45,339 nucleotides of DNA, from the IMG/VR virus record IMGVR_UViG_3300042691_003607, positions 1 through 45,339 of that record. One strand, written 5' to 3'. The DNA comes from a virus. A model generated the notes under the pieces. It did not search any database and was not told the origin of the DNA. It was given only the letters and a program-made list of their open reading frames with translations. Positions 21,854 to 35,582 of this stretch are shown here, piece by piece; within the stretch, counting starts at the first letter, position 1, and each line of letters opens with the position of its first letter. The position numbers and the translations under genes are program-made.

Positions 21854-22216
21854 TTATCTTTTGAATAGTTCACTTATTGGTATTAGGAACCCAAGTGATG
21901 TGTTTTTGTCACCACCTCTTTTGATGTACATATTGCTTTTGTAGTAAGCCCTCAACTTCTCTTTCAAATGATTGACGTCCCATAGCGCACAGCAATTAAT
22001 CTTATCAATCCTGTAGAGCCAGTAGTCTGCTTCAGTTGTAGATATTCCTGACGGCTTTCCTCTTGATGAGAACTCAATGAATACGTTGCCAGTCCTATGC
22101 GCTATGTAGTCTGACTTAACCTCCACTTTGTATTCACCATTGAATAATTTTTTTGCCCAGTCCTCGGCCTCTTGTCCAATCTTCATGTCATAATCAAAAC
22201 TGCTAGAGTATTTCAT
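21854..22216 (-). CDS. Phage PD-(D/E)XK nuclease-like protein (120 aa)
   Basis: A 120-residue protein with N-terminal helix (IGQEAEDWAKKLFNG), then KVEVKSD (E-x-K) and FIEFSSRGKPSGISTTEADYWLY. The second part matches a conserved block in a family of small phage restriction-fold proteins (an acidic residue, then S-R-G-x-P-S-G, then T-x-A-D-x-W). Likely metal-dependent DNA processing; substrate unknown. It overlaps the helicase gene by four bases (ATGA), so the two are translationally coupled. Confidence 0.65.
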   Translation of the reverse strand: MKYSSSFDYDMKIGQEAEDWAKKLFNGEYKVEVKSDYIAHRTGNVFIEFSSRGKPSGISTTEADYWLYRIDKINCCALWDVNHLKEKLRAYYKSNMYIKRGGDKNTSLGFLIPISELFKR

Positions 22217-30467: not shown

Positions 30468-30601
30468 AGTTGTTTGGTTTGTTTATATAATACATAAATG
30501 AAAAGTCCCACGTGCAAGCCAACGTAAATTGTTATCGCAAGAGGGACAGACAAGAGGAAGAATTTAGCCAACTCTCCCACTACGTAGAGACTCCTTTTCA
30601 T
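30434..30601 (-). CDS. Small membrane protein (55 aa)
   Basis: I found this frame by reading the minus strand. The ATG at 30601 overlaps the stop of the upstream gene in ATGA fashion, and the stop at 30434 lies inside the start of the next gene. The product has one hydrophobic helix (FFLLSVPLAITIYVGLHVG, about residues 14-35) and a basic C-terminus (QTKQLCQRIKHKTAG). It may be a small holin-like or membrane-associated protein. Confidence 0.55.
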   Translation of the reverse strand: MKRSLYVVGELAKFFLLSVPLAITIYVGLHVGLFIYVLYKQTKQLCQRIKHKTAG

Positions 30602-30759
30602 ACCATAGCGTTTTTGTTTTTAGTGAATAGATTAACCAATACTTTGCTCAGTCCATACAGCAGTGTCCCACAGAACGCCACCACACAGAAAGCCCAAAAA
30701 GAAAAGATTACTTGGATACCTGAGTCCATCTGCAGGACATCATTGATAATTGTCTCCAT
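30598..30759 (-). CDS. Small membrane protein (53 aa)
   Basis: A 53-residue frame starting with ATG at 30759, 28 bases downstream of the hammerhead ribozyme at 30787-30837, and ending in an ATGA overlap with the next small membrane gene. It has a hydrophobic segment (IQVIFSFWAFCVVAFCGTLL, about residues 15-35). With the next gene it forms a pair of single-span proteins. Function unknown. Confidence 0.55.
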   Translation of the reverse strand: METIINDVLQMDSGIQVIFSFWAFCVVAFCGTLLYGLSKVLVNLFTKNKNAMV

Positions 30760-30786: not shown

Positions 30787-30837
30787 GCTGTTTCATCTTT
30801 TCAGAATCGTCAGTCAGGACACACATCCTGATACAGC
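30787..30837 (-). ncRNA. Hammerhead ribozyme A (type III), minus strand
   Basis: Read 5' to 3' on the minus strand: GCUGUA with cleavage after A (30832/30831), stem I UCAGGA with loop UGUGUG and UCCUGA, the invariant core CUGACGA, stem II UUCU-GAAA-AGAU, then GAAAC and AGC. Stem III pairs GCUGU with ACAGC. All catalytic core positions of the hammerhead (CUGANGA and GAAA, cleavage triplet GUH) are present. Stem I closes with a hexaloop and stem III is open, hence type III. It lies between the 363-aa gene and the small membrane gene at 30759. Confidence 0.85.
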
Positions 30838-30858
30838 AGGGCAGTGTCTTATGAACTC

Positions 30859-30874
30859 GTGTCTTTGAAGACAC
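30859..30874. repeat. 16-bp palindrome GTGTCTT-TG-AAGACAC
   Basis: Perfect 7+2+7 inverted repeat upstream of hammerhead A in the transcript sense. A half-site AAGACAC recurs closer to the ribozyme (30844-30850). It shares the flank CTCGCA with the copy at 33936. Confidence 0.85.
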
Positions 30875-30905
30875 TCGCACATGAAGAACACCACCCTGAG
30901 AGAGA

Positions 30906-31997
30906 CTAAGGCTGGAATCGTAGAACCTCATTCTCAGTGAACCACTCACCGCAACCGCTACAGTGGTAGTTCGAGAACCCATCGTGCTCCAAGTCGTGGA
31001 AACATTCGACACAGACAGGCTTCTCATTGTAAATATCAAACTCGCAATCATCACACTCATCCTCAATGAAGTCAAGCAAGTTCAACTGGTACTTGTTGAC
31101 CGCAAACTTGGTCTCCTTCTTGTCTTGTTGCTCGTAGTACCATGTGTTGACTGGCTCCTGAACGTAGGACGTATGGAGCATATTACCCACACTGGTCTCT
31201 TTGATATTGAAGTAAATCCAGCACGTCAACTCCTTGCCCTTCACAACCACTGGTATCTGCTTGCGCTTGTACCAATTCGGGTGCCCCTCCAACTTGTCCA
31301 ACTCCGACAGCACTGGGTCGCTTACCTTGAACACGTCCACCACCACATTGTACCCTTTTCCACGCTCCTCAATCAAGTAAGGTAGACCCTTGATAACAAG
31401 CGGGTACTTTTCTTTGGTCTTGCCTGCGCCCACGTGCTTGGAGCCAGTCAAGTAGCGATTGTAATTGTTGTAACCCTTCTTAAGGGTGCCATACACAGCA
31501 ACCAAGTTGTCCTCAAGGACATTGGCCTTGCTGAACCACACACCATCACGCTGTGTCCACAGGTGCTTGTTGTAAATCTGAAAAGTCCTGCTGTGCGTGT
31601 TGACAGTGACGAATCTGCACTCATACTGCTCTAATTCTTTTTTCCACTTGTGTCGTGGTATTCTACCTAGACTCTCAGCCAACACACGTGAGTCGCTCTT
31701 GAATGCGTTGCCCAGCCCACGGATGGTGCCGTTCATCATCAACCACTCCTGCTTGTTGTCACCACACACGAAAGGGTGCGTGTTGTACTTGTTGACCGCT
31801 CCGATAGTAGCGTACCTGAAGTGAGCAATAAAGGGTCGGTCTGTAAATAGAACCTTGTACTCATTTGATTTGTGGTAGGTGACCTCAAAGGTGTCCAACC
31901 AAATTACACCCAGTCCATGAGGGTTGATACGTGATGAAGTCTTGGCGACCTCCTGAGGCAGTTGCTTGCCTGTCTGCTTGATAATGATTACACACAT
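30906..31997 (-). CDS. Class II glutamine amidotransferase fused to GGCT/AIG2-like domain and zinc ribbon
   Basis: A 363-residue fusion. Residues 1-165 are an Ntn-type class II amidotransferase: Cys2 as the N-terminal nucleophile, HFRYATIG (59-66), NTHPF (72-76) and MMNGTI (87-92; the usual His-Asn-Gly has Met). Residues about 166-285 are a gamma-glutamyl cyclotransferase/AIG2-like domain: AVYGTLKKG (167-175) and LDKLEGHP with the candidate catalytic Glu (237). Residues about 315-360 hold CDDC, CVEC and CSGCGEWF, a zinc ribbon. This pairs enzymes that release ammonia from glutamine and cut gamma-glutamyl bonds, next to an amidoligase at 34725. It has its own promoter and leader palindrome. 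Confidence 0.85.
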   Translation of the reverse strand: MCVIIIKQTGKQLPQEVAKTSSRINPHGLGVIWLDTFEVTYHKSNEYKVLFTDRPFIAHFRYATIGAVNKYNTHPFVCGDNKQEWLMMNGTIRGLGNAFKSDSRVLAESLGRIPRHKWKKELEQYECRFVTVNTHSRTFQIYNKHLWTQRDGVWFSKANVLEDNLVAVYGTLKKGYNNYNRYLTGSKHVGAGKTKEKYPLVIKGLPYLIEERGKGYNVVVDVFKVSDPVLSELDKLEGHPNWYKRKQIPVVVKGKELTCWIYFNIKETSVGNMLHTSYVQEPVNTWYYEQQDKKETKFAVNKYQLNLLDFIEDECDDCEFDIYNEKPVCVECFHDLEHDGFSNYHCSGCGEWFTENEVLRFQP

Positions 31998-32019
31998 AAA
32001 TTGATTTGATTTGTGGGCA

Positions 32020-32035
32020 GTGTCTTTGAAGACAC
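32020..32035. repeat. 16-bp palindrome GTGTCTT-TG-AAGACAC
   Basis: Perfect copy in the leader of the amidotransferase-fusion gene, between its promoter and ATG. Confidence 0.85.
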
Positions 32036-32070
32036 AGAACCCGATTAGATTGAATTGAACGAATAATGAA

Positions 32071-32101
32071 CAAAGGTACTACAAGATTTGAACATCTCCA
32101 A
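32071..32101 (-). promoter_or_regulatory. Bacteroidetes-type promoter on the minus strand
   Basis: On the minus strand TTTG (TTG at 32101-32099) is followed after 20 bases by TACCTTTG (32078-32071), a close match to TTTG-N19-TAnnTTTG. It precedes the 363-aa gene with a roughly 70-base leader that contains a palindrome copy. Confidence 0.75.
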
Positions 32102-32108
32102 ATTTAGG

Positions 32109-32270
32109 CTAATAAATTTTAGTAGCACTGAACTTGGAACGCTCCAAGTTTGGCATCTCAGAAGCGTACATATAGTAGGCTCTATCCATTGCCTCCCACT
32201 TGGTATGGGCTGAAATACTACAGACAAACTCTTTGTTGTAGTAGACTTTGAAGTAGTGTAGGCTCTCCAT
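32109..32270 (-). CDS. Small protein of unknown function (53 aa)
   Basis: I found this frame on the minus strand: ATG at 32270, one base after the TGA of the upstream gene (TGACATG), to TAG at 32109. The product is 53 residues, aromatic-rich, with a W-E-A-M-D-R-A-Y-Y-M-Y-A helix. This is a better gene than the overlapping frame in another phase. The promoter for the next gene overlaps its 3' end. Function unknown. Confidence 0.6.
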   Translation of the reverse strand: MESLHYFKVYYNKEFVCSISAHTKWEAMDRAYYMYASEMPNLERSKFSATKIY

Positions 32271-32271
32271 G

Positions 32272-32469
32272 TCAATTGATTTTAGTTAGGTTGAAAGGGA
32301 TTGCGTCAAGGCCATACTCAAACGTGTAGCCCTCAGCCTCACATCTGCTTAGTATGTCATCGCATTTCTCGTACGTAATGTCATCCTGACCAAACTCGCT
32401 CAGGATTAGTTGCACCTTGTAAGGTAGCGTTTCGATTGTTTCGAATAGGTCATCCATTTTAGTAGTCAT
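32272..32469 (-). CDS. Small acidic protein of unknown function (65 aa)
   Basis: A 65-residue acidic protein (ILSEFGQDDITYEKCDDILSRC in the middle). Two starts are possible: ATG at 32469, inside the end of the upstream gene, or ATG at 32457, right after the upstream stop (TAAAATG). No family recognised. Confidence 0.6.
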   Translation of the reverse strand: MTTKMDDLFETIETLPYKVQLILSEFGQDDITYEKCDDILSRCEAEGYTFEYGLDAIPFNLTKIN

Positions 32470-32746
32470 TTTCTAGTCTCTCGCCTGCATAGGATGAATC
32501 AAAATACCTGTCTCTTCTGTATGGATACCTGTCACTTTCGTAGCAGGAATCACACCAGTAACCAGTACTATACCCGTACGAATCATGTTGCTCGTACACG
32601 TCTTTCTTGGTCTCACATCCCCTGCAAGGGATTTTGTTTGACTCCCAGTGGCATTCGCCACATACATCGCCTTCGAACCACATATCGTGTCGCCCTTGTG
32701 CTTGCCCACATTCTGAGCAGTGCCATACATCATTTGGTTTTGTCAT
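32459..32746 (-). CDS. Multi zinc-ribbon protein (95 aa)
   Basis: I chose the ATG at 32746, which follows an A-rich AATCAAATCAAT leader; the longer frame to 32836 would translate the hammerhead ribozyme. The product is 95 residues with at least three Cys pairs: CSEC, CGEC, CRGC and CDSC, typical of tandem zinc ribbons, followed by an Arg/Tyr-rich tail (YPYRRDRYFDSSY). Possibly nucleic-acid binding. It is the first gene downstream of hammerhead B. Confidence 0.7.
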   Translation of the reverse strand: MTKPNDVWHCSECGQAQGRHDMWFEGDVCGECHWESNKIPCRGCETKKDVYEQHDSYGYSTGYWCDSCYESDRYPYRRDRYFDSSYAGERLENDY

Positions 32747-32761
32747 ATTGATTTGATTTTT

Positions 32762-32788
32762 TGAGGAGGGTTTCAACCCCCCTCGGGG
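32762..32788 (-). other. Hairpin between hammerhead B and the zinc-ribbon gene
   Basis: On the minus strand, GAGG-G-GGGUU, then GAAACCC-U-CCUC followed by six A. It lies between the ribozyme 3' end and the gene's leader. A similar hairpin (GCAGG/CCUGC with inner GGUU/AACC) occupies the same place after hammerhead D. Confidence 0.5.
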
Positions 32789-32797
32789 TTTGTAATT

Positions 32798-32846
32798 CTG
32801 TTTCGTTCTTTTGAACTCATCAGCCCGGGCACACACCCGGGGACAG
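32798..32846 (-). ncRNA. Hammerhead ribozyme B (type III), minus strand
   Basis: Minus strand: CUGUC with cleavage after C (32842/32841), stem I CCCGGG, loop UGUGUG, CCCGGG, the core CUGAUGA, stem II GUUC-AAAA-GAAC, then GAAAC and AG. Stem III pairs CUGU with ACAG. The core is the canonical CUGAUGA...GAAA. Compared with copies A and D, stem I has changed on both sides while the loop is the same, which is direct covariation. It sits between the 74-aa and zinc-ribbon genes. Confidence 0.9.
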
Positions 32847-32847
32847 C

Positions 32848-32867
32848 CGGGAACCGAAGCTCCCGGG
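32848..32867 (-). other. Hairpin with UUCG tetraloop upstream of hammerhead B
   Basis: Minus strand CCGGGAGC-UUCG-GUUCCCGG: an eight-base-pair stem (one G-U) closed by a very stable cUUCGg loop, ending one base before the stem III strand of hammerhead B. It may shield the 3' end of the upstream message after cleavage. Confidence 0.7.
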
Positions 32868-32874
32868 GATAAAA

Positions 32875-33099
32875 CTAATAGGTCAGGTAGACAAACTCAG
32901 AGAACATCTTGATAGTGTTCTTTGGGTATCGTTTCTCCAACGCATCCACCAGACTTTCATTATCGTACTCATCCGAGCCCTCTCGCTCAGCCATCACTAG
33001 AGGATTGATTACCTCAGTTATTTGCTCCTCAGTTAGGTCAGTAAGGAGGAATAAGTCCTCCTCCTTGAATGCCGTAGTATTGATTTGATAAATTTGCAT
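32875..33099 (-). CDS. Acidic helical protein of unknown function (74 aa)
   Basis: A 74-residue protein with a Glu/Asp-rich helical middle (EEDLFLLTDLTEEQITEVINPL, then EREGSDEYDNESLVDAL). Stop is just upstream of the UUCG hairpin. The gap to the next upstream gene is four bases. No family recognised. Confidence 0.65.
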   Translation of the reverse strand: MQIYQINTTAFKEEDLFLLTDLTEEQITEVINPLVMAEREGSDEYDNESLVDALEKRYPKNTIKMFSEFVYLTY

Positions 33100-33103
33100 A
33101 GTG

Positions 33104-33646
33104 TTATTGATTTATGTTTGTTAATACTCGATTGAAATCCTCAGGTCGCACCACCACGAAGTAGTTTGGTCTCCATATCCCCTGAGTATCGGACTCATGG
33201 CGTCTGAAAGGAACTCCCAACTCACGAAGCCCAGCCTCGACAGGCTCAAGCGTGCTCAGGTTATTGCTGTGCCACACCGCATAGTTTGGTTGGCTGTAGC
33301 CACCATCAGCAACCCATGTGCTAGTCAGGTCAAACACAGGCTCCGTCTCAGGACGAACCGACCCCATGAAGTCAGCCACACGAACCCACTCACCATCCCA
33401 AGCGTGGCCGTTCAGGTACCATTGACCTTTCTTTTGTACTATCCACACCTCAGGTAGTCCGTTCAGTCTCTCCTTTGTAGTTGCTGAAGGCCAGCCCGCA
33501 TTGGTTATCCATAGGCCATTTCCCCTGCGCTCCGCAATCATGTTGTCCCATAGCCATATAACACCACCTTGTGTTATTGTGTTGTCAATTTTGAGGCGCT
33601 CCCCATTAAGGAAAGCGCTCACGATTCTGCTTGTAATTTGTCTCAT
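33104..33646 (-). CDS. Phage protein with N-terminal TTKERLNGL domain (180 aa)
   Basis: The first about 90 residues (AFLNGERLKIDNT near the start, NGLWITNAGWPSATTKERLNGL, then WYLNGHAWDGEW) belong to a short domain common in phage and plasmid accessory genes, of unknown function. The C-terminal 70 residues (AVWHSNNLSTLEPVEAGL) are a second domain, possibly a ferredoxin-like fold, that I cannot name. The gene overlaps the upstream one by four bases. Confidence 0.65.
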   Translation of the reverse strand: MRQITSRIVSAFLNGERLKIDNTITQGGVIWLWDNMIAERRGNGLWITNAGWPSATTKERLNGLPEVWIVQKKGQWYLNGHAWDGEWVRVADFMGSVRPETEPVFDLTSTWVADGGYSQPNYAVWHSNNLSTLEPVEAGLRELGVPFRRHESDTQGIWRPNYFVVVRPEDFNRVLTNINQ

Positions 33647-33843
33647 TGTAGGTTTTTGTTTAGTGAATAAACTCTTAATCCATTTTGCTCAATCTTCACA
33701 TCAACTGCGTACTGCTCATTAAGTGCGCTTAGCAGTTGTCTGTAGGTCTTGACATCCTCAGGGGTCAGGTACAAGAGGCGGTCAATTACGTCCTGAACTA
33801 CCTCAGCACGCTCCTCAATAGGGGTTACTCTTTTTGTTTCCAT
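33643..33843 (-). CDS. Small protein of unknown function (66 aa)
   Basis: I chose the ATG at 33843 (METKRVTPIEERAEVVQDVI), because the longer frame to 33900 runs through hammerhead C. The 66-residue product is helical at the start with a PEDVKTYRQLLSALNEQY segment and a strand-rich end. It begins 21 bases after the 3' edge of hammerhead C and overlaps the next gene by four bases. Confidence 0.6.
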   Translation of the reverse strand: METKRVTPIEERAEVVQDVIDRLLYLTPEDVKTYRQLLSALNEQYAVDVKIEQNGLRVYSLNKNLQ

Positions 33844-33864
33844 GTTACTTTTGTTTTTTGGTTT

Positions 33865-33915
33865 GCCGTTTCGACCTTTTGGTCTCATCAGGAAGGGCAC
33901 TCACCCTCCGACAGC
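33865..33915 (-). ncRNA. Hammerhead ribozyme C (type III), minus strand
   Basis: Minus strand: GCUGUC with cleavage after C (33910/33909), stem I GGAGGG, loop UGAGUG, CCCUUC (one G-U pair), the core CUGAUGA, stem II GACC-AAAA-GGUC, then GAAAC and GGC. Stem III pairs GCUGU with ACGGC (one U-G). All three stems differ in sequence from the other copies yet stay paired. It lies 20 bases after a palindrome copy and upstream of the 66-aa gene. Confidence 0.9.
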
Positions 33916-33935
33916 AGTGTCTAGCGTGTCCGCTT

Positions 33936-33951
33936 GTGTCTTTAAAGACAC
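33936..33951. repeat. 16-bp palindrome GTGTCTT-TA-AAGACAC
   Basis: Fully palindromic copy upstream of hammerhead C in the transcript sense; flank CTCGCA matches the copy next to hammerhead A. A partial half-site UAGACAC recurs before the ribozyme. Confidence 0.85.
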
Positions 33952-33977
33952 TCGCATCCACACGACACCGCCAGTAC

Positions 33978-34190
33978 TCATGGGCTCCCGACAATAAAGT
34001 CCTCCTCCATGCGGTACTCAATCACCTCCTCGCTTGTCACCCTACCTGTAATCTTGTATACGTCCTGTTCCTCCGTTGGACGTGCCCTGAACGTGGTAGT
34101 GCAAAGCATCACGTTCCACTCAAGTACAAACTCTCTTGCATCCTGCTCGGAGCCTGTGAAAAAGGTTTCAACTGAAATCAACTCGCTCAT
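33978..34190 (-). CDS. Small protein of unknown function (70 aa)
   Basis: A 70-residue mostly strand-forming protein (SVETFFTGSEQDAREFVLEW, ending EYRMEEDFIVGSP). Its ATG overlaps the stop of the two-TM gene upstream (ATGA). The stop is followed by the palindrome and hammerhead C. No family recognised. Confidence 0.6.
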   Translation of the reverse strand: MSELISVETFFTGSEQDAREFVLEWNVMLCTTTFRARPTEEQDVYKITGRVTSEEVIEYRMEEDFIVGSP

Positions 34191-34381
34191 TTCCGTTTGG
34201 TTAATATCATTACGCCAGCCATAAAAAACAGGAACCCAAGTCCTAAAAACAGGAATAACACCTGCACCACATTTCCAAAGGTCAACTCAAGACCCGAGAC
34301 CAAAGCCACGCACATCCGCACGACAGCCACCAAAGTAAATAGGTAGCAAAAGGTCAACAATAAACGCTCAATTTTTCTCAT
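34187..34381 (-). CDS. Two-span membrane protein (64 aa)
   Basis: I chose the ATG at 34381 (MRKIERLLLTFCYLF); the longer frame overlaps the upstream gene. The 64-residue product has two hydrophobic helices (about residues 7-30 and 38-60) and a TKRK basic end, a layout seen in small phage inner-membrane proteins and holins. It is translationally coupled to the next gene. Confidence 0.6.
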   Translation of the reverse strand: MRKIERLLLTFCYLFTLVAVVRMCVALVSGLELTFGNVVQVLFLFLGLGFLFFMAGVMILTKRK

Positions 34382-34385
34382 GTCC

Positions 34386-34598
34386 TTAGATATTATTTTG
34401 GTAGCAAAAATTGTCAAAGTACGCCTCCTCATTTGCCGTAATATGGGCAAAGGTTTGGGCGGTCTCTTTTTGATTCCTGTAGGTCTTGGAATCCATGCAG
34501 TAGGCCTTGCCGTCAAAGTAGATTGACTCGCCAGCCTTGATAGTTTTGCCCGTCTCAGCGCAAGCGCTTTTGAATCTAGCGGTAATAAATTTTCCCAT
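34386..34598 (-). CDS. Small phage protein, FxSxCxxTGxxIxxGE family (70 aa)
   Basis: A 70-residue protein beginning FITARFKSACAETGKTIKAGE, followed by YFDGKAYCMDS. This short Cys-containing beta-rich pattern occurs in many small phage and plasmid proteins of unknown role, perhaps zinc-binding. It is the first gene downstream of hammerhead D, with its ATG 49 bases from the ribozyme 3' edge. Confidence 0.6.
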   Translation of the reverse strand: MGKFITARFKSACAETGKTIKAGESIYFDGKAYCMDSKTYRNQKETAQTFAHITANEEAYFDNFCYQNNI

Positions 34599-34613
34599 GT
34601 TAATTAAGGTTTT

Positions 34614-34637
34614 GCAGGAGGGTTTTAACCCCTGCGG
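34614..34637 (-). other. Hairpin between hammerhead D and the 70-aa gene
   Basis: Minus strand GCAGG-GGUU-AAAACC-CU-CCUGC: a stem of GCAGG/CCUGC plus GGUU/AACC with a small bulge, at the same place as the hairpin after hammerhead B. Confidence 0.5.
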
Positions 34638-34647
34638 GTTTGCAATT

Positions 34648-34697
34648 CTGTTTCGCCCTTTTGGGCTCTTCAGTCAGGACACACATCCTGAGACATG
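34648..34697 (-). ncRNA. Hammerhead ribozyme D (type III), minus strand
   Basis: Minus strand: AUGUC with cleavage after C (34692/34691), stem I UCAGGA, loop UGUGUG, UCCUGA, the core CUGAAGA, stem II GCCC-AAAA-GGGC, then GAAAC and AG. Stem III is short (GU and one A-U pair with ACA), the weakest of the four. Just upstream is a hairpin GGGGCGG/CCGUCCC. It lies between the amidoligase gene and the 70-aa gene. Confidence 0.8.
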
Positions 34698-34724: not shown

Positions 34725-35582
34725 CTACCGCAAGTACTCAGCGATTGACTGGTGAATTTCACCTGTGTTAATGTACTTTTGAAAATGTACGGATAAGTTG
34801 ATTACCTCCTCAGCCTTTGCCGTATCGCCATTATACATGGACACAATTACTGGTCTGATGCGCTTGACAAAGGCCATGTAATTACCTGAGCCCTCCAGCG
34901 AAAAATCAACCAAGTGGTAAAACAACTCATACCTGCGCATCATCTGTTTGACCGACTCAAAGCGAGAAGGAATCCTAAACTCGAGGCAATTGCCCTTGAC
35001 CAAAGCCACTTGGTAGCGAGAGCCGTAGTAGTCGCTCCTGAGCCTCTTATTTTCACCGCAAAACCTGTTTTGCAGGCGGTTGCGAAATAGGGCTAAAATG
35101 ATGCCTGAGTTCTTGCGTACTGCATCCAGCAGGGTTTCACCGCTCATGTTTGCTCGGGCAATTGTAATGTGACCCCCGCAACGTCTATCTGAGGGGCTGT
35201 AGCGGTCATCAATAATCCGCTCCGCCTTGTGCATCATGTCGTAGACCTTTGTGCGCCATTGACCCGCTGGTAGGAGCGGTAGGACATGGGTCACAGCCTC
35301 ATATCCGCAGGAGGCATCCCGCTCGAAGCCACAAAACAACTCATATTCCCGCACCGCGTTTCTGTGGAGGAGGTTTTTTTCAACCTCAAAGCCTATCGTG
35401 TATTGAGAGGAAAATTCAACCCCGTCAAACTTTATGGATTTTTGCTCCGTCTTTTTGAGCCCCGCCACGTCCACGCTGTATGGGGTCTTATTCAAAAATA
35501 GGGGCTCAGGCTTTCTGTGGTAGTTTGCCACTTCGCCTCTTTGGTCTTCACCAGTTAATTTGTACTCGATTCCGTTTTGCAT
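34725..35582 (-). CDS. Amidoligase (COOH-NH2 ligase of the GCS/GS fold)
   Basis: A 285-residue protein with the markers of the phage/bacterial amidoligase family: GFEVE (64-68) in the first strand, FERDASCGYEAVTH (86-99) with Asp and Glu for Mg-ATP, CGGHI (135-139), and LEFRIPSRF (200-208). The GCS/glutamine-synthetase-like fold would join an amine to a carboxylate using ATP. The substrate is unknown; family members are proposed to modify peptides or make small peptide-like compounds. It is in the same minus-strand module as the class II amidotransferase-GGCT fusion, which supports a shared pathway. Leader contains a palindrome copy. Confidence 0.85.
   Translation of the reverse strand: MQNGIEYKLTGEDQRGEVANYHRKPEPLFLNKTPYSVDVAGLKKTEQKSIKFDGVEFSSQYTIGFEVEKNLLHRNAVREYELFCGFERDASCGYEAVTHVLPLLPAGQWRTKVYDMMHKAERIIDDRYSPSDRRCGGHITIARANMSGETLLDAVRKNSGIILALFRNRLQNRFCGENKRLRSDYYGSRYQVALVKGNCLEFRIPSRFESVKQMMRRYELFYHLVDFSLEGSGNYMAFVKRIRPVIVSMYNGDTAKAEEVINLSVHFQKYINTGEIHQSIAEYLR

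What the first reader, a model, noticed from the sequence alone, without database searches (positions are those of the whole stretch)
30787..34697. Array of four hammerhead ribozymes at gene junctions of one minus-strand operon
Four intergenic elements (30787-30837, 32798-32846, 33865-33915, 34648-34697) each contain, on the coding strand, a GUH cleavage site, stem I with a hexaloop (UGUGUG in three, UGAGUG in one), the invariant CUGANGA, a 4-bp stem II (AAAA or GAAA loop), GAAAC, and stem III. The stems change sequence between copies but stay paired: stem I UCAGGA/UCCUGA, CCCGGG/CCCGGG, GGAGGG/CCCUUC; stem II GCCC/GGGC, GUUC/GAAC, GACC/GGUC; stem III 3-5 bp. Loops and core are conserved. This is covariation of a self-cleaving RNA, not chance. 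Hammerheads have been reported in phages, but four dispersed copies in one operon, each at a junction between gene blocks, suggest programmed cutting of a polycistronic phage mRNA.
Basis: partly seen in the sequence, partly recalled or inferred. Interest (0 to 1): 0.95.

Follow-up and report, generated by a model that had tools for sequence, protein, structure and literature searches.

The report
Ribozymes that cut phage messenger RNA
This virus of bacteria carries four small self-cutting RNAs between its genes; in related viruses the same gene boundary almost always carries such an RNA or a tRNA-like one, while the gene after it keeps changing, so they probably work as cut-here punctuation marks that separate added genes from the genes before them.

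Summary
Four type III hammerhead ribozymes lie on the minus strand, each between a stop codon and the next ATG. All four match Rfam RF00008 (E 1e-6 to 6e-4), though below its curated cut-off. A model built from 51 viral relatives (12 of 15 pairs with double changes) finds these four in the window and no others, and hundreds elsewhere in IMG/VR. Clustered hammerheads in prophages, and the mRNA-cutting idea, were published in 2011, so the class is not new. What is new here: (1) a stereotyped module of stop, strong hairpin, ribozyme cut ~37-40 nt after the stop, ~25-nt leader, ATG; (2) an unbiased test: 67 of 80 relatives of the amidoligase-like gene at 34725-35582, fetched by protein alone, have a ribozyme just after the stop, against 6 of 80 just before the gene, while the next gene varies; (3) most exceptions carry a ~42-nt tRNA-like element lacking an anticodon arm at that junction; elsewhere a type I hammerhead or a twister; (4) where the gene abuts its usual partner there is no ribozyme. 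Most likely these are interchangeable RNA cleavage marks that insulate inserted genes. Cleavage itself, and the tRNA-like elements' function, are untested.

The parts
34647..34697 (-). Type III hammerhead ribozyme A; predicted cut between 34692 and 34691
   Evidence: RF00008 E 5.6e-4; model R1 66.5 bits
33865..33915 (-). Type III hammerhead ribozyme C; predicted cut between 33910 and 33909
   Evidence: RF00008 E 1.1e-6; R1 68.7 bits
32797..32847 (-). Type III hammerhead ribozyme B; predicted cut between 32842 and 32841
   Evidence: RF00008 E 6.7e-5; R1 73.9 bits
30787..30837 (-). Type III hammerhead ribozyme D; predicted cut between 30832 and 30831; U-U first pair in stem II
   Evidence: RF00008 E 2.0e-4; R1 68.7 bits
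34697..34717 (-). 8-bp hairpin directly 5' of ribozyme A: predicted 3' end of the upstream cleavage product
   Evidence: RNAfold; general feature of the module
33913..33972 (-). Long hairpin 5' of ribozyme C, containing the palindrome GTGTCTTTAAAGACAC; its 3' end overlaps the 5' strand of stem III
   Evidence: RNAfold; palindrome
32847..32866 (-). 8-bp hairpin with TTCG loop, 5' of ribozyme B
   Evidence: RNAfold
30837..30898 (-). Long hairpin 5' of ribozyme D, containing GTGTCTTCAAAGACAC
   Evidence: RNAfold; palindrome
34614..34635 (-). Hairpin in the leader between ribozyme A and the next ATG
   Evidence: RNAfold
32763..32784 (-). Hairpin in the leader between ribozyme B and the next ATG
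   Evidence: RNAfold
34725..35582 (-). Amidoligase-like (glutamine-synthetase fold) gene, 285 aa, upstream of ribozyme A; family 'fam4'
   Evidence: Alignment; AlphaFold2 model pLDDT 86.5, PDB matches all glutamine synthetase type; no Pfam match
33978..34598 (-). Three small genes (34386-34598, 34187-34381, 33978-34190) between ribozymes A and C
   Evidence: ORFs; no Pfam match
32875..33843 (-). Three small genes (33643-33843, 33104-33646, 32875-33099) between ribozymes C and B
   Evidence: ORFs; 33104-33646 matches PF23790 and phrog_554
32109..32746 (-). Small genes (32459-32746, 32272-32469, 32109-32270) after ribozyme B
   Evidence: ORFs
32071..32102 (-). Candidate Bacteroidota-type promoter TTTG-N20-TACCTTTG
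   Evidence: Pattern match; about 1.6 expected by chance in the window
30906..31997 (-). GATase II / gamma-glutamyl cyclotransferase fusion gene upstream of ribozyme D; family 'fam24'
   Evidence: PF06094 E 1.3e-22
30598..30759 (-). Small gene downstream of ribozyme D
   Evidence: ORF

Best explanation
The four elements are hammerhead ribozymes that cut the minus-strand transcript of a flavophage-like virus (a virus of Bacteroidota) at gene boundaries. Each cut should leave the upstream message ending in a stable hairpin plus about five nucleotides with a 2',3'-cyclic phosphate. It should leave the downstream message starting with a 5'-hydroxyl and the stem I hairpin, followed by a short leader. 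The selected feature is the cut itself: it separates inserted 'cargo' genes from a more conserved upstream gene, giving each block its own RNA ends, stability and translation context whatever lies before it. It thus works as natural punctuation, comparable to the engineered insulator RiboJ. Shown here by sequence: ribozyme structure, covariation, strand, module spacing, attachment to one gene's 3' side, and replacement there by other elements. Inferred: cleavage in the cell, the chemistry of the ends, the effect on stability and translation, and the benefit.
For: Structure and covariation. Ribozymes with homologous flanks differ by 778 double (pair-preserving) changes, 73 one-sided and 93 pair-breaking ones over 184 comparisons. 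Strand: 44 loci with two or more copies, none of mixed strand. Module: the 30 nt before the cut fold at -12.3 kcal/mol on average against -2.9 further upstream and -4.1 shuffled, and GAAAC to ATG is 25 nt (IQR 21-27); stop to cut is 37 nt. Unbiased test: 67 of 80 relatives of the amidoligase-like gene, fetched by protein only, have a ribozyme with its cut about 40 nt after the stop; 58 of 71 clusters at 95% identity, and only 6 of 80 within 150 nt before the gene. Second gene family: 42 of 80. The downstream gene changes: 18 intact junctions after the first family lead to 15 gene families. Replacement: 7 of the 13 exceptions have a tRNA-like element there, two members of the second family have a type I-topology hammerhead there, and L211 has a twister-P3 ribozyme just before the gene. 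Where the two genes abut (L234, L238, MW202828) there is no ribozyme; with a ribozyme at least 780 nt of other genes lie between them. RiboJ, a hammerhead plus hairpin, doubled mRNA on average (PMC6206723).
Against: No cleavage was measured. Hairpins are also common in gaps without ribozymes in these phages (65% against 80% of length-matched gaps, medians -10.2 and -16.1 kcal/mol), so the hairpin is not specific to the module. The higher gene turnover at ribozyme junctions is clear per junction (kept 29% against 53% on the other side, p = 4e-4) but not when counted per gene family (p = 0.39). RNAfold alone does not favour the short stem III, as expected for a structure stabilised by tertiary contacts. 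The nearest relative, MW202828, manages without ribozymes.
Confidence: 0.66

Rival explanations
1. The ribozymes mainly form 3' ends for the upstream gene: they stand in for terminators by leaving a hairpin at the 3' end, and the downstream gene is incidental.
For: The ribozyme stays attached to the 3' side of the amidoligase-like gene (67 of 80) while the downstream gene varies. A strong hairpin ends 0-4 nt before the GUH in most copies.
Against: Spacing to the downstream ATG is as fixed as to the upstream stop. When the next gene is the usual partner no ribozyme is present, so the upstream gene does not need one. The isolated Elemovirus copy sits before the first gene of its operon, with oppositely directed genes upstream.
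Confidence: 0.2
2. Pairs of ribozymes excise the RNA between them, which is then ligated into circular RNA.
For: Cleaved ends (5'-OH and cyclic phosphate) suit RtcB-type ligation; several copies lie in tandem on one strand.
Against: Many contigs have a single copy. No RtcB gene in 42 phages including this one (a host enzyme is not excluded). tRNA-like elements, which would not leave such ends, occupy the same site. Perreault et al. looked for spliced or circular products and found none.
Confidence: 0.06
3. The conserved ribozyme and hairpin blocks persist mainly as recombination boundaries at which gene cassettes are swapped; RNA cleavage is secondary.
For: Downstream genes differ after the same upstream gene. 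The palindrome GTGTCTTYAAAGACAC recurs 10 times in the window.
Against: Stems diverge freely but stay paired, so the RNA fold is what is kept. Strand is always that of the genes. Unrelated RNA elements replace it at the same site.
Confidence: 0.07
4. The motifs are chance or decayed look-alikes.
For: Below the Rfam gathering score; one stem III of only 3 bp.
Against: 0.1 expected per window for the strict form; 144 of 144 viral matches have full stem I pairing; strong covariation.
Confidence: 0.01

Closest known systems
Clustered hammerhead ribozymes in prophages (Perreault et al. 2011, PMC3088659)
   Same: Several hammerheads on one strand flanking single genes or small gene blocks in phage DNA; transcript processing proposed; tandem arrays self-cleave in vitro and one array in E. 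coli.
   Different: That paper's main text, as searched here, does not describe a hairpin-ribozyme-leader module, attachment to one gene's 3' side, or replacement by tRNA-like elements. The elements here fall below the Rfam cut-off and show a U-U or A-A stem II variant.
Hammerhead_3 (RF00008), type III hammerhead
   Same: Same order of stems, core CUGANGA...GAAA and GUH cleavage site.
   Different: Hexaloop UGNGUG on stem I and RAAA loop on a 4-bp stem II; scores 31-41 bits against a gathering score of 48.5.
RiboJ synthetic insulator (PMC6206723)
   Same: Hammerhead in the leader that trims upstream RNA and leaves a structured, standard 5' end before the start codon; copies A and B also have a hairpin after the ribozyme, as RiboJ does.
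   Different: Natural, lies between genes rather than after a promoter, and has a hairpin ahead of the cut.
tRNA punctuation and mascRNA-type processing by RNase P/Z (PMC11693755 for mascRNA)
   Same: Structured elements between genes mark where a long transcript is cut.
   Different: The window uses self-cleaving RNA. The tRNA-like elements of related phages lack an anticodon arm, and their processing is untested.

Membership tests
Hammerhead ribozyme | Core CUGANGA ... GAAA with three helices around it | tested here: met
   All four copies; core invariant in 51 relatives
Hammerhead ribozyme | NUH cleavage triplet at the stem III/I junction | tested here: met
   GUC three times, GUA once; 144 relatives all UC, UA or UU
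Hammerhead ribozyme | Helices conserved by compensatory change | tested here: met
Hammerhead ribozyme | Self-cleavage activity | not testable with these tools
   Needs transcription in vitro
Type III topology (RF00008) | Stems I and II closed by loops, stem III open | tested here: met
Type III topology (RF00008) | Score at or above the Rfam gathering threshold | tested here: not met
   31.6-41.1 bits against 48.5; none of the copies in 11 related loci pass either
Clustered phage hammerheads that process mRNA | Several copies, gene strand, between genes of a phage | tested here: met
Clustered phage hammerheads that process mRNA | Cleaved transcripts in infected cells | not testable with these tools
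   No transcriptome available
Retrozyme / viroid-like circular RNA | Short repeats with ribozymes that circularise, with a ligase | tested here: not met
   Coding DNA lies between copies; no RtcB in 42 phages

The most novel reading that the evidence does not exclude
In these phages the junction after a conserved gene must be cut at the RNA level, and evolution has filled that slot with unrelated devices: type III hammerheads, type I hammerheads, possibly twister, and a new ~42-nt tRNA-like element (acceptor stem, 1-2 bp D-arm with an AUGGU loop, T-arm, no anticodon arm) cut by host RNase P and RNase Z. Cargo genes arrive as cassettes carrying their own cutting element.
Probability: 0.5. Interest if true: 0.88.

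Novelty: new variant of a known kind. Interest (0 to 1): 0.74.

Why it matters
The role of hammerheads in phages has been called an open question (PMC6155905). A ribozyme tied to one named gene boundary, with different elements substituting there, turns it into a clean prediction: cutting, not the ribozyme class, is what selection keeps. Cultured relatives exist: Flavobacterium Elemovirus with a type III hammerhead and Cellulophaga phage phi18:3 with a type I-like one. The natural modules could also serve as RNA insulator parts.

Tried and rejected
Rfam at gathering thresholds found nothing in the window or in 11 related loci. Megablast of the window against known phages: no match. An 84-nt consensus module against phages found mostly palindrome look-alikes, but led to phi18:3. 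Intrinsic terminators as the reading of the upstream hairpin: no U-tract follows; the sequence after it is the stem III strand. The claim that ribozyme junctions are synteny break points in general was dropped: significant per junction but not per gene family. The first count, a ribozyme after 28 of 28 copies of the amidoligase-like gene, was biased because those loci had been fetched by the ribozyme pattern; it was replaced by the protein-only retrieval. Twister-P3 as a common substitute: only 1 of 46 phages. RtcB-assisted circularisation: no RtcB. The base-pair probabilities for copy D used an index one base off and are not used.
Full report
WHAT IS THERE. On the minus strand between 34697 and 30787 lie four 51-nt elements with the full type III hammerhead plan: stem III 5' strand, GUH, 6-bp stem I with hexaloop UGUGUG or UGAGUG, CUGANGA, 4-bp stem II with AAAA or GAAA loop, GAAA, stem III 3' strand. 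RF00008 matches all four, E 1.1e-6 to 5.6e-4 in 4.3 kb against all Rfam families, but below its gathering score, so standard annotation misses them. A strict descriptor gives 0.1 hit per shuffled window.

RELATIVES. All 144 elements in these stretches plus the window have six of six stem I pairs, with 77 different stem I sequences. In 51 diverse elements 12 of 15 pairs show double changes, with covariation score 0.878 against 0.215 shuffled and 0.06-0.13 when slid. The first pair of stem II is G-C, U-U or A-A, which explains the odd fourth copy in the window. Model R1 finds exactly the four copies in the window (E <= 2e-20), 185 matches in 100 loci, and 1-5 copies in each of 38 whole contigs. 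In 44 loci with several copies, all copies share one strand.

ANATOMY. Across 112 distinct elements the 30 nt ending at the GUH fold at -12.3 kcal/mol on average, against -2.9 further upstream and -4.1 for shuffles; the last paired base is 0-4 nt from the GUH in 84. The distance from GAAAC to the next ATG is 25 nt (IQR 21-27). Stop to cut is 37 nt. The window follows the plan: a hairpin ends within 5 nt of each GUH or overlaps stem III, and copies A and B carry a further hairpin in the leader. A caution: hairpins are common in other gaps of these phages too, only weaker.

HOST AND GENES. The primase is 77% identical to Podoviridae sp. ctfjg026 (MW202828), and the next relatives are phages of Flavobacterium, Cellulophaga, Tenacibaculum and Maribacter. 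The gene upstream of ribozyme A (34725-35582) has a glutamine-synthetase-like fold: model pLDDT 86.5, 21 PDB matches with E <= 1e-3, all glutamine synthetase or gamma-glutamyl-methylamide synthetase. TM-scores are low (0.3-0.4), so this is a fold-level assignment to amidoligases; Pfam finds nothing. The gene upstream of ribozyme D (30906-31997) is a GATase II / gamma-glutamyl cyclotransferase fusion. The genes between are small and unknown.

THE UNBIASED TEST. Because the first loci were fetched by ribozyme, relatives of both genes were fetched again by protein alone. Of 80 relatives of the amidoligase-like gene, 67 have a ribozyme within 150 nt after the stop, cut at a median of 40 nt; at 95% nucleotide clustering 58 of 71 clusters. 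Only 6 of 80 have one within 150 nt before the gene. For the second gene it is 42 of 80. In the first set of loci, 18 intact junctions after the amidoligase-like gene lead to 15 different gene families. Where the two genes abut (L234, L238, MW202828) there is no ribozyme; with a ribozyme, at least 780 nt of other genes lie between them. So the ribozyme marks the border between a conserved gene and inserted ones.

REPLACEMENTS. Of the 13 exceptions, 7 carry a tRNA-like element at the same place. Its plan is an acceptor stem of 5-7 bp, a 10-11 nt stretch containing AUGGU, and a T-stem with loop UUCGANU, about 42 nt in all. L185 has a longer middle part, and L208's junction copy was recognised by eye only. 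In the protein-fetched loci (766 kb) 34 lie on the gene strand, 1 on the other, and none arise in shuffles. A wider pattern gave 76 distinct viral elements. In 62 the acceptor has at least 5 bp, with 33 different sequences; the bases flanking AUGGU pair as GC 43, CG 13, AT 9, TA 8, a one- to two-pair D-arm. They begin about 7 nt after a stop and end about 31 nt before an ATG. ARAGORN does not call them, and no Rfam family matched them in seven loci that carry them. At the second gene's junction L300 and L313 have a type I-topology hammerhead. L211 has a twister-P3 ribozyme ending about 28 nt before the amidoligase-like gene. That such elements share one slot argues that cutting is what is kept. 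Whether the tRNA-like elements are cut by RNase P and Z is inference.

MECHANISM. Best supported: co-transcriptional self-cleavage at gene borders gives upstream messages a hairpin-protected 3' end, and gives downstream messages a uniform 5'-OH, hairpin-started leader, insulating inserted genes. RiboJ is a precedent for the effect. Circularisation is unlikely: no RtcB in 42 phages, and Perreault et al. detected no circular products. A 3'-end-only role remains the main rival.

KNOWN OR NEW. Clustered phage hammerheads and the processing idea date from 2011, and their role was still called open in 2017. The library searches found no description of the stereotyped module, its attachment to one gene border, or the tRNA-like substitute; the library holds only open-licence papers, so absence there is weak evidence. 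Verdict: a new variant of a known kind, with a good chance of a more general principle behind it.

Noticed in passing
window 373, 14024, 15857, 22475, 30859, 32020, 33936, 35598, 36525, 41425: The palindrome GTGTCTTYAAAGACAC (one mismatch allowed) occurs at ten places where 0.01 is expected; three lie inside long ORFs (14024 and 15857 in the 2886-aa ORF, 22475 in the helicase), others between genes. It also forms the hairpin ahead of 39 of 112 viral hammerheads. It may have a DNA-level role.
   Followed up: partly
L199:2870-2913, L202:1896-1936, L173:2924-2964 and 76 distinct elements: A ~42-nt tRNA-like element without anticodon arm lies between phage genes on the gene strand, not called by ARAGORN and with no Rfam match in the loci tested; apparently undescribed.
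   Followed up: partly
L124-L153 (genome contigs): The same hammerhead type occurs in about 29 bacterial MAG contigs, at least 19 of them Patescibacteria; many lack an ATG at the usual ~25 nt and have a different upstream hairpin, so their context differs from the phage module.
   Followed up: partly
L217 and L237, just after the amidoligase-like gene: Two loci share another structured motif (CAGAAACGG ... GGATTTGGTGGTAGAAAC) at the same junction, with no Rfam match; possibly an unknown cleaving RNA.
   Followed up: no
L211:1895-1972: A twister-P3 ribozyme (61.8 bits, above cut-off) ends about 28 nt before the amidoligase-like gene in a related phage.
   Followed up: partly
L216:2920-2952: A DUF805b RNA motif (RF02914, above cut-off) sits at the same junction after the amidoligase-like gene in one phage.
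   Followed up: no
NC_055853.1 17867-17919 (L163) and NC_021794.1 about 21931-21957 (L159): Cultured phages with hammerheads: Flavobacterium Elemovirus (type III, 16 nt before gp59) and Cellulophaga phi18:3 (type I-like, RAGATH-1, unannotated).
   Followed up: yes
L001 versus L006 ribozymes: Orthologous ribozymes with flanks 78-89% identical differ by four double stem I changes, which suggests unusually fast stem turnover or cassette exchange.
   Followed up: no
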